A stretch of DNA of 64,000 bases from contig NC_019682.1 of NCBI RefSeq assembly GCF_000316575.1, positions 930,001-994,000 on the forward strand, given 5' to 3'. The position numbers and the translations under genes were made by a program. The notes under the pieces are model-generated. The model saw only the letters and a program-made list of their open reading frames with translations, was not told the origin of the DNA and did not search any database. Positions 48,071 to 52,778 of the stretch are shown in pieces; position 1 is the first letter of the stretch, and every line of letters starts with the position of its first letter. Source of the stretch: Calothrix sp. PCC 7507 (GTDB lineage: Bacteria > Cyanobacteriota > Cyanobacteriia > Cyanobacteriales > Nostocaceae).

Positions 48071-48340
48071 ACCGAAATGAGAAAGCAAACCGCAGTTTGA
48101 GAAAGCAATATCTGCTTTTACTTGCTGAATCTACCGAAATGAGAAAGCAAACCGCAGTTTGAGAAAGCAATATCTGCTTTTACTTGCTGAATCTACCGAA
48201 ATGAGAAAGCAAAAAGGCATTTTGAGAAAGCAATATCTGTTTTTGCTTACTGAATCTACTGAAATGAGAAAGCAAAAAGGCATTTTGAGAAAGCAAACTG
48301 GAGTTTGAGAAAGCAATATCTGCTTTTGCTGATTAAATTA
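48071..48340. repeat. 62-bp tandem repeat array
   Basis: A 62-base unit starting ACCGAAATGAGAAAGCAA begins at 48071, 48133 and 48195, a variant unit begins at 48258, and a partial unit follows. Each unit carries two GAGAAAGCAA boxes. Units 1 and 2 are identical; units 3 and 4 share AAAAGGCATTTTGAG in place of AACCGCAGTTTGAG. No gene overlaps convincingly. Confidence 0.85.
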
Positions 48341-48629
48341 CCCAAAAGTTGCTCTCCAGATTCCTAACTTCTTGAAGAAGCCGGTGATCTAAACACTCGT
48401 CTGTAGTCTGTAACAGATGTCTTAAAAGTCATATACGAAGTCATATACAAAATCAAATAACCCATACATAAACTCATATATAGGACTGTGACAATTAAAT
48501 TAAAGGGTAAAAGAAAAGTGAAATCGGCGATTAGAAACCGCACGCCAGTTGCTACCCTGCGGGTTCCGCTTTAGCGGTACAAGTCAGCAGAGCCGCCCAA
48601 CGCACTGGCTCGTCTACACAAACAAAACC

Positions 48630-48943
48630 GGGAGCATCCACTTTTGGAAGAAATACCGGGCGATTGGAAATCGCGGCTACACAAACGTTCGCCCTTGGCG
48701 TTCCCGAAGGGTAGTCCGCCTTCGCGGACTCTCTGAAACCCGCGTTCGCGTAACGTTCCGCAGGAAAGACGGGTTTAGTTTGTATAGCCCCAGACTACTA
48801 GTAGTCTGTCAGGGTTGAAATGAGGGACTGTAGTGTAAGCGTCTCGCTCACGCGGGCTTTTCGGCCCGCACTACCAAAAACCCCTCAAAACAAAATTGAC
48901 AAACTACTAGTCTGAGAGCGATCCGCCAAAAGTGGATGCTCCC
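48630..48943. mobile_element. Composite 314-bp element with GGGAGCATCC ends
   Basis: Perfect 18-bp terminal inverted repeats, GGGAGCATCCACTTTTGG, and a perfect 8-bp target duplication, ACAAAACC (48622-48629 and 48944-48951). It carries a family-B copy (about 48658-48796) and a complete family-A MITE (48798-48910) as passengers. The ends are related to those of the 191-bp MITEs at 49121 and 52588. No transposase is present. Confidence 0.8.
48798..48910 (+). mobile_element. MITE, family A, complete copy nested in a larger element
   Basis: This 113-bp copy is nearly identical to 10944-11056, with one change in the first stem (GTAAGCG for GTGAGCG). It lies inside the 48630-48943 element. Confidence 0.8.
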
Positions 48944-49112
48944 ACAAAACCTACATCCGCAGGTTAAAAATCCTTGATTTCGGATTAGTCAACCTCCGTG
49001 GACTTTGTTTGTGTAGTAGCGAATTTTATTTGCCAAATACTTTTTAAACTCTTCCTTCTTTTACCTTTTACCTTTTAACTTTTAACTTGCATCTCATTAT
49101 TGGCAGGAAACC

Positions 49113-49316
49113 ATGACTACGGGTGCATCCCAGTTTTTATTATGCAGAAGGAGAAAAACCAAAATGTCATTGCGAGGAGGAACGACGAAGCAATCGCATA
49201 GACTTGTTATGAGTGGAAAATCTTGCGATTGCTTGTCTGCGACACGCTCCGCGAACGCTTCACTTCGTTATGCTCGCAATGACGGAGCATTTAAAAAAGT
49301 GGGATGCTCCCCATGA
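49113..49316 (+). CDS. 67-codon MITE-derived ORF coupled to cas1
   Basis: This frame begins at the original cas1 start codon (ATG 49113, with AGGA six bases upstream), then reads through the 191-bp MITE for 64 codons. Its TGA (49314-49316) overlaps the duplicated cas1 ATG (49313-49315) as ATGA. The product (MTTGASQFLLCRRRKTK...) is basic and shows no domain, so the peptide itself is unlikely to matter. The value of the frame would be to deliver ribosomes to the cas1 start. Translation is inferred. Confidence 0.5.
   Translation: MTTGASQFLLCRRRKTKMSLRGGTTKQSHRLVMSGKSCDCLSATRSANASLRYARNDGAFKKVGCSP
49121..49311 (+). mobile_element. 191-bp MITE inserted at the cas1 start codon
   Basis: The ends are GGGTGCATCCCAGTTTTT and (complement of the right end) GGGAGCATCCCACTTTTT. 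It is flanked by CATGACTAC on both sides (49112-49120 and 49312-49320), the duplicated target, which includes the cas1 ATG. The interior has a CATTGCGAG...CTCGCAATG foldback. It is identical base for base to the inverted copy at 52588-52778. Confidence 0.9.
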
Positions 49317-50329
49317 CTACTTTATATATAACTGACCAAGGTGCATATCTGAGCATAAAAAATCAGCAGTTTCAAGTATTTTGTCAAGGTCAGTTGCGGA
49401 TTAAAGTGCCAGTATCACGGGTAAGCAATGTTGTGCTATTTGGTTCTTGCAATGTATCACATGGTGCGGTGAGCATGGCATTGCGGCGACGAATTCCGAT
49501 TATGTATTTATCCCAGAAAGGGAGATATTTTGGCAGGTTGCAAGCAGAAGGTGATGCTAGGGTAGAATATTTGATGTTACAAGTTGAGCGTTGCCAAAAT
49601 CTGGAATTTACGCGCAATCAAGCAGAAGTAATTGTCACAGCTAAAATCCATAACTCTCGAATCTTATTAATGCGCTTAAATCGCAGAAAATCACCGGAAT
49701 TTGATGATAGTCTTGTCAAAGAAGCAATAAAAAATTTAGATGTTTTGATGGATAAATTACCCTTTGCAGAGAGTATGGATGCATTGCGAGGGTATGAAGG
49801 AAAAGCAGCGACAGTTTATTTTCAAGCATTGGGAAATTTATTCTCTGGTGCGTTTAAATTCGAGAAGCGTACCAAGCGTCCACCCACTGACCCAGTTAAT
49901 AGCCTTTTGAGTTTAGGATATACATTACTCAGCCAAAATGTTTTCTCGTTTATCCAATCTGTAGGATTGCATACTCACTTTGGTAATCTTCACGTCCCCC
50001 GCGATAATCACCCAGCCTTAGTTAGCGACTTAATGGAGGAATTTCGCGCTCAACTAGTTGATTCTTTAGTTGCTTATTTGATTAACTCGAATATTTTCAC
50101 AGCAGATGATTTTACTCTTCCTGATGAAAAAGGAGGTGTATATCTTCAACCCCATGCGTTGAAAAAGTTTCTCAAGCACTGGGAAGAAAAGCTGCAATCT
50201 GAGTTAACGCACCCAAATACAGGATATAAAGTGAGCTTTCGTAGGTGTTTAGAGCTACAAGTGCGGGAGTATGTAGCTTGTCTAAGGGGAGAGGTGAAGG
50301 TATATCGACCAATGATTTGGAAACCTTAA
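49313..50329 (+). CDS. cas1: CRISPR-associated endonuclease/integrase Cas1
   Basis: Cas1 inserts new spacers at the leader end of a CRISPR array, normally as a complex with Cas2. The 338-residue product has an N-terminal beta domain (about 1-75) and a helical catalytic domain with Glu162 (RGYEGKAAT), His227 (FGNLHVPR) and the acidic DLMEEF (about 239-244), so the metal site looks complete. No cas2 or effector gene is in the window. The ATG used is the copy created by a MITE target duplication; the original ribosome-binding site is now 200 bases upstream. The array leader begins right after its stop. Confidence 0.93.
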   Translation: MTTLYITDQGAYLSIKNQQFQVFCQGQLRIKVPVSRVSNVVLFGSCNVSHGAVSMALRRRIPIMYLSQKGRYFGRLQAEGDARVEYLMLQVERCQNLEFTRNQAEVIVTAKIHNSRILLMRLNRRKSPEFDDSLVKEAIKNLDVLMDKLPFAESMDALRGYEGKAATVYFQALGNLFSGAFKFEKRTKRPPTDPVNSLLSLGYTLLSQNVFSFIQSVGLHTHFGNLHVPRDNHPALVSDLMEEFRAQLVDSLVAYLINSNIFTADDFTLPDEKGGVYLQPHALKKFLKHWEEKLQSELTHPNTGYKVSFRRCLELQVREYVACLRGEVKVYRPMIWKP

Positions 50330-50658: not shown

Positions 50659-52029
50659 GTTTTAATTCCTTTACCCCTCACGGGGATGGAAACCCTTGGG
50701 TGTCCACTGAAGCGCTGCCATTAATGGCAAACGCTGTTTTAATTCCTTTACCCCTCACGGGGATGGAAACATTTCCTTGGGTTTCTCCAGAATTTTTACT
50801 CGTCAAGTTTTAATTCCTTTACCCCTCACGGGGATGGAAACGGTCTTCCCGTTTTAGGGAAGTGCGAGTTAGCACCCTCTTGGGTTTTAATTCCTTTACC
50901 CCTCACGGGGATGGAAACGCTTTTAATGAAGCCGGAAATGATGCAATCTTTTGAGGTGTTTTAATTCCTTTACCCCTCACGGGGATGGAAACGTGATACC
51001 ACTTTGCAAGAAGTTACCCAAATCGGTTAAAGTTTTAATTCCTTTACCCCTCACGGGGATGGAAACTCTTGCGCTACTTTGCATCCACATCTTTTTGTGT
51101 TTGAAGTTTTAATTCCTTTACCCCTCACGGGGATGGAAACTGTTGGTAATCAAAAAGGGGAAACTAATTCAAATACTAAGGAGTTTTAATTCCTTTACCC
51201 CTCACGGGGATGGAAACTTTTGCCAACAGTGCAAGTGCATCAATTGATTCAGAAAGAATAGTTTTAATTCCTTTACCCCTCACGGGGATGGAAACTAGAT
51301 AAGTACACCTTTGATTTCATTTCCATCTAGCAGTAGTTTTAATTCCTTTACCCCTCACGGGGATGGAAACCAGCTACTGAACTTCGGTTGTTGTAGTTTT
51401 TTTGAGTTTTAATTCCTTTACCCCTCACGGGGATGGAAACTTTCGAGCCAGTGGGAGTAAAATCAAATCTTACTTTCGTTTTAATTCCTTTACCCCTCAC
51501 GGGGATGGAAACATTAGTTATTGACAACCGCAACTCCATTGGCTGTCATCGTTTTAATTCCTTTACCCCTCACGGGGATGGAAACTGAACTACCAGAAAA
51601 ATTAGAGCTATCAAAGAAAGAGGTTTTAATTCCTTTACCCCTCACGGGGATGGAAACCCTTGGTTGCTGGCAGTCCGTCCAAACGCAATTCCTGCATTGG
51701 TTTTAATTCCTTTACCCCTCACGGGGATGGAAACCGCTCTGATTTGTAGCTAATTCACCTCTTGGTTGTGCAGGGGTTTTAATTCCTTTACCCCTCACGG
51801 GGATGGAAACTCTCTCATAGCAACTATATGTAATAGTTGTAGGTGTACGAGTTTTAATTCCTTTACCCCTCACGGGGATGGAAACAAGTTCAACACTATT
51901 CCCAACGCAATCATCCACTTGTTTTAATTCCTTTACCCCTCACGGGGATGGAAACTTTCCTCGAATACCCGAGCTATAGAGAAATGATGTAAGTGTTTTA
52001 ATTCCTTTACCCCTCACGGGGATGGAAAC
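50659..52029 (+). CRISPR. CRISPR array, 19 identical 35-bp repeats, 18 spacers
   Basis: The repeat starts GTTTTAATTCCTTTACCCC and ends TCACGGGGATGGAAAC, with a short stem (CCCC..tca..GGGG with flanking bases). By eye all 19 copies are identical, including the last. Spacers are 35-43 bases, all different. The terminal GAAAC is the handle side seen in type I/III systems, which gives transcription on the plus strand from the leader next to cas1. The subtype cannot be set because no effector genes are present. The uniform repeats suggest a young or active array. Confidence 0.97.
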
Positions 52030-52077: not shown

Positions 52078-52587
52078 TGCTGTGAAATCACAGGCGATCG
52101 CATTTTTCATGAGATATCAAGCTATTGTCAGGCGATCGCTTTTTTAAGCAGTGCTGTGAAATCACAGGCGATCGCATTTTTCAGGGGATATCAAGCTATT
52201 GTCAGGCGATCGCTTTTTTAAGTCAGTGCTGTGAAATCACAGGCGATCGCATTTTTCAGGGGATATCAAGCTATTGTCAGGCGATCGCTTTTTTAAACAG
52301 TGCTGTGAAATCACAGGCGATCGCATTTTTCAGGGGATATCAAGCTATTGTCAGGCGATCGCTTTTTTAAGCAGTGCTGTGAAATCACAGGCGATCGCAT
52401 TTTTCAGGGGATATCAAGCTATTGTCAGGCGATCGCTTTTTTAAGCAGTGCTGTGAAATCACAGGCGATCGCATTTTTCAGGGGATATCAAGCTATTGTC
52501 AGGCGATCGCTTTTTTAAGCAGTGCTGTGAGATCACAGGCGATCGCATTTTTCAGGGGATATCAAGCTATTGTCAGGCGATCGCTTT
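52078..52587. repeat. 74-bp minisatellite carrying paired HIP1 sites
   Basis: Seven units begin at 52078, 52152, 52227, 52301, 52375, 52449 and 52523 (period 74, once 75). Each unit has two GGCGATCGC boxes, one after GAAATCACA and one after CTATTGTCA, so 14 HIP1 octamers lie in about 510 bp. Units differ at only a few bases. The unit length is not a multiple of three, so the open frames across it are incidental. The seventh unit is interrupted by a MITE. Confidence 0.93.
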
Positions 52588-52778
52588 GGGAGCATCCCAC
52601 TTTTTTAAATGCTCCGTCATTGCGAGCATAACGAAGTGAAGCGTTCGCGGAGCGTGTCGCAGACAAGCAATCGCAAGATTTTCCACTCATAACAAGTCTA
52701 TGCGATTGCTTCGTCGTTCCTCCTCGCAATGACATTTTGGTTTTTCTCCTTCTGCATAATAAAAACTGGGATGCACCC
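52588..52778 (-). mobile_element. 191-bp MITE, identical inverted copy
   Basis: The exact reverse complement of 49121-49311. It is inserted in the last HIP1 box of the minisatellite, with an 8-bp target duplication ATCGCTTT (52580-52587 and 52779-52786). With its partner it brackets cas1, the leader, the array and the minisatellite. Confidence 0.9.

What the first reader, a model, noticed from the sequence alone, without database searches (positions are those of the whole stretch)
49112..49320. MITE landed on the cas1 start codon and rebuilt it as a translationally coupled ORF
The 9-bp target CATGACTAC is present on both sides of the 191-bp MITE and contains the cas1 ATG. The original ribosome-binding site (AGGA) and ATG (49113) now open a 67-codon frame through the MITE whose TGA overlaps the duplicated cas1 ATG (ATGA). 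The 200-base shift is the only reason the frame ends there. cas1 has no good ribosome-binding site of its own, so its expression may depend on reinitiation. The insertion and frames are seen directly; coupling is inferred.
Basis: partly seen in the sequence, partly recalled or inferred. Interest (0 to 1): 0.85.

Follow-up and report, generated by a model that had tools for sequence, protein, structure and literature searches.

The report
MITE splits former RT-Cas1 internal start
In a cyanobacterium, a small mobile element landed on the start codon of a CRISPR cas1 gene that had already lost its fused reverse transcriptase, and relatives suggest that this start codon is a conserved second start hidden inside the fused gene.

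Summary
In detail: a 191-bp MITE (49121-49311) with a 9-bp duplication sits on the cas1 ATG. Three exact copies in the genome have 8-9 bp duplications, and a second copy of the locus is the empty site.

The reading needs correcting. The closest homologues are the C-terminal half of RT-Cas1 fusions of about 680 codons. AGGA is part of the linker codons CAG GAA, and the ATG is the linker Met. The RT half was deleted between two ATCTCAT repeats (985 bp apart in the intact own paralogue), leaving that Met as first start. The MITE came later and now separates the ATG from its Shine-Dalgarno (SD) word.

That internal start looks selected. In 67 cyanobacterial RT-Cas1 genes the Met is ATG in 67. The codon three before it gives an SD word whether it encodes Gln (CAG 23/23), Arg (AGR 19/19) or Ser (AGY 11/11 after Trp); 11 of 67 genes lack the word. 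RT-cas1 probably makes RT-Cas1 and free Cas1. Two paper searches for this found nothing.

Coupling of cas1 to the 67-codon frame is plausible but unproven; a silent gene is the main rival.

The parts
49045..49097 (+). 5' leader, homologous to the leader just before the RT start codon of the intact own RT-cas1 gene
   Evidence: 94% over 53 bp to L085
49091..49097 (+). ATCTCAT, the 7-bp repeat at which the RT half was deleted
   Evidence: The intact paralogue L085 has the repeat twice, 985 bp apart, at the RT start and in the linker
49092..49112 (+). Remnant of the RT-Cas1 linker, codons S-H-Y-W-Q-E-T, in frame with the linker Met
   Evidence: Compared with L085 and G027 linkers
49105..49108 (+). 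AGGA, SD word formed by the Gln-Glu codons CAG GAA
   Evidence: Sequence; duplex energy -5.5 kcal/mol; conserved in relatives
49112..49120 (+). Left target-site duplicate CATGACTAC with the former linker ATG at 49113
49121..49311 (+). MITE, 191 bp, ends GGGTGCATCCCAG / GGGAGCATCCCAC
   Evidence: Three exact copies with duplications; empty site L087
49113..49316 (+). 67-codon frame through the MITE, TGA overlapping the cas1 ATG
   Evidence: no family match in Pfam or NCBIfam at E <= 0.001
49304..49306 (+). Alternative in-frame cas1 start ATG supplied by the MITE end (M-L-P-M...)
49312..49320 (+). Right target-site duplicate CATGACTAC with the present cas1 ATG at 49313
49313..50329 (+). cas1, 338 aa, derived from an RT-Cas1 fusion; frame intact
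   Evidence: PF01867 E 2e-91, TIGR00287, 92% to the Cas1 half of a 683-codon open RT-Cas1 frame in G027
50659..52029 (+). CRISPR array, 19 repeats (CRISPR-DR37, matched on the - strand), 18 spacers
52588..52778 (-). Second exact copy of the MITE, 8-bp duplication AAAGCGAT on the - strand

Best explanation
Three events made this locus. (1) An RT-cas1 fusion gene lost its RT half by deletion between two 7-bp repeats (shown by comparison). Cas1 could survive because the fused gene already carried an internal Shine-Dalgarno word and ATG exactly at the start of the Cas1 half (strong comparative inference). (2) The RT-less head is shared by two loci of this genome, and the window gene is a mosaic of a head mostly like the own copies and a body like G027, so recombination between copies took part (shown as pattern; direction inferred). 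(3) Recently a MITE inserted with a 9-bp duplication that included the ATG but not the SD word (insertion shown; recency inferred from identical copies). Now the SD word and first ATG head a 67-codon frame through the MITE that ends on the TGA overlapping the cas1 ATG. Most likely Cas1 is made at a reduced level by ribosomes that finish this frame, open the MITE hairpin and restart at 49313 or 49304 (inferred, not shown).
For: History: the closest homologues are fusions; no RT sequence anywhere in the 64-kb window at E <= 1e-3; deletion repeats; empty site with the same RT-less junction in L087; mosaic sites; identical MITE copies with duplications.

Internal start: among 67 distinct intact fusions the junction Met is ATG in 67 of 67, the only invariant Met column of the aligned stretch, in which the RT half was cut at 330 codons so that most RT initiator codons are left out. 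Codon -3 is CAG in 23/23 Gln (next best of 77 Gln columns 93%) and AGA/AGG in 19/19 Arg (next best of 69 Arg columns 41.5%, median 4.8%). SD energy is below all synonymous randomisations in both sets: 51 genes, none of 300, and 16 further genes, none of 500. The internal site is stronger than the putative RT start: four-base SD word in 53 against 16 of 63.

Coupling: ATGA overlap; no four-base SD word before 49313; the region folds strongly, z -3.9; the six bases ending at the cas1 ATG are less often open with the MITE than in the empty copy (0.011 against 0.21). Cas1 is intact with low dN/dS against G027 (0.062).
Against: No expression data. The MITE end gives a gapped anti-SD pairing of -4.9 kcal/mol. 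Mean openness of the start region differs little with and without the MITE (0.41 against 0.48). No Cas2 lies in the window. The RT-less sister L087 is broken by inserts and the G144 orthologue is cut by a transposase-like frame (by eye), so this kind of locus can decay. Low dN/dS mostly reflects time before the MITE. Branch counts (nonsynonymous codons / synonymous changes) are 13/40 for the window, 5/42 for G027 and 10/26 for F. muscicola; the window does not differ significantly from G027 (p 0.12) or from both pooled (p 0.39), and the mosaic head confounds them. The SD word is missing in 11 of 67 fusions. After Trp elsewhere in these genes Arg is already AGR in 8 of 17, so the Arg signal is weaker against that control (p 0.0003), and Lys shows none (4/5 against 17/29). 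The sequences are related, so these p-values overstate the case.
Confidence: 0.62

Rival explanations
1. The MITE silenced cas1. Ribosomes read the 67-codon frame and leave; the locus, already without RT and Cas2, is a decaying orphan beside an array.
For: L087 is broken and the G144 orthologue is cut by a transposase-like frame; no Cas2 in the window; identical MITE copies suggest a recent insertion, so an intact frame says little; an intact RT-Cas1 with the same repeats exists elsewhere in the genome.
Against: The cas1 frame is full length with no stop; the ATGA overlap and the ATG at 49304 give two ways to start.
Confidence: 0.35
2. cas1 now starts independently at ATG 49304, or at 49313 with the gapped SD pairing from the MITE end; the 67-codon frame is incidental.
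For: In-frame ATG 49304; -4.9 kcal/mol pairing before 49313.
Against: 49304 has almost no SD pairing (-0.6); neither site has a four-base SD word (read); both lie in or beside the terminal repeat.
Confidence: 0.15
3. The SD-like word before the linker Met is a relic of two once separate genes, or a by-product of amino-acid choice, with no internal start in use.
For: Most of the fusions share a W-x-[E/D]-x-M motif; 11 of 67 fusions lack the SD word; cyanobacteria often start without SD (recalled); openness at the junction ATG is only slightly above other ATGs (0.44 against 0.42).
Against: Synonymous choice is constrained: CAG 23/23, AGR 19/19, while the residues at -4/-3 changed at least 18 times on the tree; the further set of 16 agrees; other in-frame ATGs average -2.0 and -2.2 against -5.4 and -7.1.
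Confidence: 0.25
4. One reading: AGGA-ATG was the ordinary start of a stand-alone cas1 gene.
For: Joined AGGA-ATG-cas1 occurs without the MITE.
Against: The closest homologues are fusions in which this ATG is internal; the leader matches the leader of an RT start.
Confidence: 0.04

Closest known systems
Insertion of IS elements and MITEs into cas genes (PMC10359306, abstract line and passages seen)
   Same: A mobile element inside a cas gene; that paper reports MITEs within cas genes too
   Different: Here the element sits exactly on the start codon, leaves the cas1 frame intact and creates an overlapping upstream frame; the words 'start codon' do not occur in that paper's main text
RT-Cas1 fusions of cyanobacteria, clade RT-CRISPR-3 (PMC5541045) / the cyanobacterial RT-Cas1 branch (PMC5513706); passages seen
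   Same: The Cas1 is 57-92% identical to the Cas1 half of the cyanobacterial fusions used here; the paralogue locus has a second, distant cas1, as reported for RT-CRISPR-3
   Different: RT half deleted; no second cas1 or cas2 in the window. 'internal' and 'start codon' occur 0 times in the main text of PMC5513706. Assignment to RT-CRISPR-3 rests on the second cas1 and was not tested by a tree
Cas11 made from an internal start in cas10d and other large-subunit genes (PMC10212523, passages seen)
   Same: A second in-frame start inside a fused cas gene, thought there to be the retained start of the once separate downstream gene
   Different: There it is an effector subunit and, by that review, expressed; here an adaptation gene, RT-cas1, and comparative evidence only
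Translationally coupled overlapping genes of the ATGA type (recalled)
   Same: Stop and start overlap by ATGA, weak own SD
   Different: The upstream frame is a MITE accident, not a gene; coupling not shown

Membership tests
MITE | Terminal inverted repeats | tested here: met
   11 of first 12, 16 of first 18 positions
MITE | Target-site duplication at several copies | tested here: met
   3 of 3 exact copies, 9, 8 and 9 bp
MITE | Short, multi-copy, no transposase gene | tested here: met
   191 bp; 3 exact copies plus partial relatives; related copies in 3 of 59 other relatives' genomes at E <= 1e-20; no family match for its frame
MITE | Autonomous partner element with the same ends | tested here: inconclusive
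   24 end matches in the genome; frames beside 15 of them looked at by eye, no family scan, none recognised; end matches close to contig starts in G026 hint at a collapsed repeat; of three G035 stretches fetched two were read: one short frame that looks IS630-like by eye, and no frame of 120 aa
RT-Cas1 fusion (cyanobacterial) | Cas1 domain | tested here: met
RT-Cas1 fusion (cyanobacterial) | RT domain fused upstream | tested here: not met
   No RT hit in the window; it is a derivative of the family, not a member
RT-Cas1 fusion (cyanobacterial) | Second, distant cas1 with cas2 in the module | tested here: not met
   Absent in the window; present at the intact own locus L085
Working Cas1 integrase | Metal-binding Glu, His, Asp (recalled) | tested here: met
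   RGYEG, NLH and SDLMEEFR aligned to 8d3l
Working Cas1 integrase | Cas2 partner at the locus | tested here: not met
   4 Cas2 matches in the genome, none in the window; supply in trans is possible
Translationally coupled pair | Overlapping stop and start | tested here: met
   ATGA at 49313-49316
Translationally coupled pair | Weak own ribosome-binding site | tested here: inconclusive
   No four-base SD word, but gapped pairing -4.9
Translationally coupled pair | Downstream output depends on upstream translation | not testable with these tools
   Needs reporters or ribosome profiling
Internal in-frame start within a cas gene (Cas11 type) | Conserved internal SD and start codon beyond codon bias | tested here: met
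   the SD word is absent in 11 of 67
Internal in-frame start within a cas gene (Cas11 type) | Shorter protein detected | not testable with these tools
   No proteomics at hand

The most novel reading that the evidence does not exclude
Cyanobacterial RT-cas1 genes are two-product genes. A selected internal SD and ATG at the RT-Cas1 boundary makes free Cas1 alongside RT-Cas1, so that the spacer-integration complex can contain both. RT loss then leaves a ready-made cas1 gene, and the window MITE is a natural mutant that cuts this start from its SD word.
Probability: 0.65. Interest if true: 0.78.

Novelty: new variant of a known kind. Interest (0 to 1): 0.62.

Why it matters
How RT-Cas1 integrases balance RT-bearing and plain Cas1 subunits matters for RNA-derived spacer capture. 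A conserved internal start predicts a second protein from the genes that carry it. It can be tested by a single-codon change, and it would alter how RT-Cas1 systems are expressed and purified. The MITE copy and its empty sister in one genome are a natural experiment on that start.

Tried and rejected
An autonomous partner for the MITE was sought by looking at frames beside 15 of 24 end matches in the genome (by eye, no family scan; the other nine are ends of the three exact copies or the second ends of elements already listed) and in two relatives (of three stretches fetched two were read). None was identified. The one frame found near such an end in G035 looks IS630-like to me by eye, which would not fit 8-9 bp duplications (recalled).

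A promoter in the MITE: the scan of 48300-49500 found no sigma-70-like site, with 1.6 expected by chance.

Relaxed selection on the RT-less cas1 was tested by branch counts and is undecided. A comparison of the leaders was offset by two bases and is not used; the 98.9% figure comes.

RNA opening around the starts gave a weak, mixed result (contexts of different length were used).

No exact spacer was shared among the arrays parsed (window, L085, L087, L165). L086 and L090 gave no array to that exact-match script, although both have similar repeats.

Literature: RT-Cas1 with 'internal start' and with 'internal translation' gave 0 papers; some searches were seen as listings with the starts of abstracts.

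Rows dropped: homologues below 55% identity or not starting within residue 3 were left out before counting; 90 rows became 69 after merging duplicates. The script called 52 of 69 intact fusions, 9 without RT and 8 with RT incomplete, broken or cut by a contig end. One of the 9 (L147) shows, in a longer stretch (L167), an RT in two pieces. One search used 51 of the 52 (one with partial Cas1 dropped). In one search, 22 loci gave 18 after 4 duplicates, and 16 were used (one short, one partial Cas1). One search used 63 of 67; its RT start codon was the one nearest 331 codons upstream, a rough rule. An earlier count said 12/12 Arg codons in the further set; among the 16 genes used it is 11 of 11.

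Full report
What was claimed and what is there. All of that is exact. The MITE has three exact copies in the 7.02-Mb genome, each with an 8-9 bp duplication. A second locus of the same genome, L087, is the empty site: 98.9% identity over the 177 bp up to and including CATGACTAC, one CATGACTAC, no MITE. The 67-codon frame arises because 200 is 2 modulo 3 and because one of the MITE's six frames is open.

The gene is not an ordinary cas1. The 338-aa product is Cas1. Its closest homologue over its full length, 92% in genome G027, is the C-terminal half of a 683-codon open RT-Cas1 frame; an own paralogue (L085, 83%) is likewise fused, and the closest named relative is the fused gene of Fischerella muscicola PCC 7414. 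Of 69 distinct homologues kept (90 rows before merging), the script called 52 intact fusions, 9 without RT and 8 with RT incomplete, broken or cut by a contig end; one of the 9 has an RT in two pieces when seen in a longer stretch. No RT sequence is found in the window. In L085 and G027 the sequence around the window ATG reads S-H-Y-W-Q-E-T-M-T-T-L-Y: the ATG is the linker Met and the AGGA is part of the codons CAG GAA.

How the RT half went. L085 has ATCTCAT at the RT start and again in the linker, 985 bp apart. The window and L087 have a single ATCTCAT joining the leader to the linker. So the RT half was deleted between short repeats. Because L087 has the same junction without the MITE, the deletion came before the MITE in this lineage. 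The window gene is a mosaic: to about base 300 of cas1 it mostly shares sites with L087 and L085 (a few with G027), after about base 310 mostly with G027. The leader is almost identical to L087 while codons 1-98 differ with dS 0.35. Recombination between copies is therefore part of the story; its direction is inferred.

The hidden start. Once the RT start is gone, the linker Met is the first start codon in the Cas1 frame after an upstream stop (read). I therefore asked whether it was already a start inside the fused gene. In most of 51 intact fusions the codon three before the Met gives a Shine-Dalgarno word although it encodes different residues; the mean pairing energy is -5.37 against -3.06 (sd 0.24) for synonymous shuffles, none of 300 as low, and other in-frame ATGs average -2.03 (483 sites), 11% of them reaching the junction median. 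Among 233 two-fold codon columns with at least 20 sequences, this Gln column alone uses one codon throughout. A further 16 fusions from the class-level search, all from outside the window's order, agree: -7.12 against -3.88, none of 500. In all 67, the Met is ATG in 67; Gln is CAG in 23 of 23; Arg is AGA or AGG in 19 of 19, where the next best of 69 Arg columns reaches 41.5%; the residues at -4 and -3 changed at least 18 times on the tree. The internal site has an SD word in 53 of 63 genes, the putative RT start in 16 of 63.

Limits of that test. The sequences are related, so counts are not independent events. The SD word is absent in 11 of 67, with at least 6 changes on the tree. Some other Ser columns also use only AGY, and Lys gives no signal. 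After Trp elsewhere in these genes Arg is AGR in 8 of 17, Gln is CAG in 7 of 27 and Ser is AGY in 6 of 15, giving p of 0.0003, 2e-8 and 0.002 for the junction excess. RNA openness at the junction is only slightly higher than at other ATGs (0.44 in 51 against 0.42 in 390, p 0.03).

What the MITE does now. The duplication took the ATG but not the SD word. The SD word and the first ATG open the 67-codon frame; cas1 at 49313 has no four-base SD word, though a gapped pairing of -4.9 kcal/mol is possible, and an in-frame ATG at 49304 has almost none (-0.6). The region folds strongly (z -3.9), and the six bases ending at the cas1 ATG are less often open with the MITE (0.011) than in the empty copy (0.21), although mean openness differs little. 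Reinitiation from the 67-codon frame is the most natural way to make Cas1, but a silent gene is nearly as likely.

Is the locus alive? The cas1 frame is intact and dN/dS against G027 is 0.062, but most of that time precedes the MITE, and branch counts do not decide. The 19-repeat array follows, without Cas2. L087 is broken, and the G144 orthologue (94% over residues 40-338) is cut by a transposase-like frame, by eye, and has no RT in the 16 kb read. RT-less Cas1 with an intact frame also occurs elsewhere: Nostoc calcicola FACHB-3891 and Desmonostoc geniculatum without an SD word, and L181 with one.

Compared with what is known. IS elements and MITEs inside cas genes are published (PMC10359306, passages). 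Cyanobacterial RT-Cas1 fusions, 15 of 15 fused in clade RT-CRISPR-3 and described there with a more distant second cas1, are published (PMC5541045, passages; PMC5513706, passages). An internal start making a second protein from a fused cas gene is published for Cas11 (PMC10212523, passages). An internal start in RT-cas1 was not found by the two searches made for it (open-licence papers only). So the insertion is a new example of a known kind, and the internal start, if real, is a known trick in a new gene.

Noticed in passing
window 52078-52587: About 7 copies of a 74-bp tandem repeat (98% matches) shortly after the CRISPR array; the second MITE copy sits at its end.
   Followed up: no
L088 (G000:C1:912000-930000), record positions 920561-921027: Remnants of another Cas1 and a Cas2 with an internal stop, about 9 kb left of the window.
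   Followed up: no
L087 5886-7431; window 48797-48911: The RT-less sister cas1 is broken by two inserts; one resembles (89%) an element that also lies upstream of the window cas1.
   Followed up: partly
L140 / L165 (genome G144): The orthologue closest to the window cas1 (94% over residues 40-338) is cut near residue 40 by a transposase-like frame (by eye) and has no RT in the 16 kb read.
   Followed up: partly
L103, L108, L168: Intact RT-less Cas1 with other neighbours (by eye) in two Nostoc-type genomes, without an SD word; possibly a separate loss of RT.
   Followed up: partly
L085 (G000:C1:3038000-3057900): Intact RT-Cas1 locus with a second Cas1-Cas2 and genes that I take, by eye, for a type III effector, with arrays of the same repeat; could serve the window array in trans.
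   Followed up: partly
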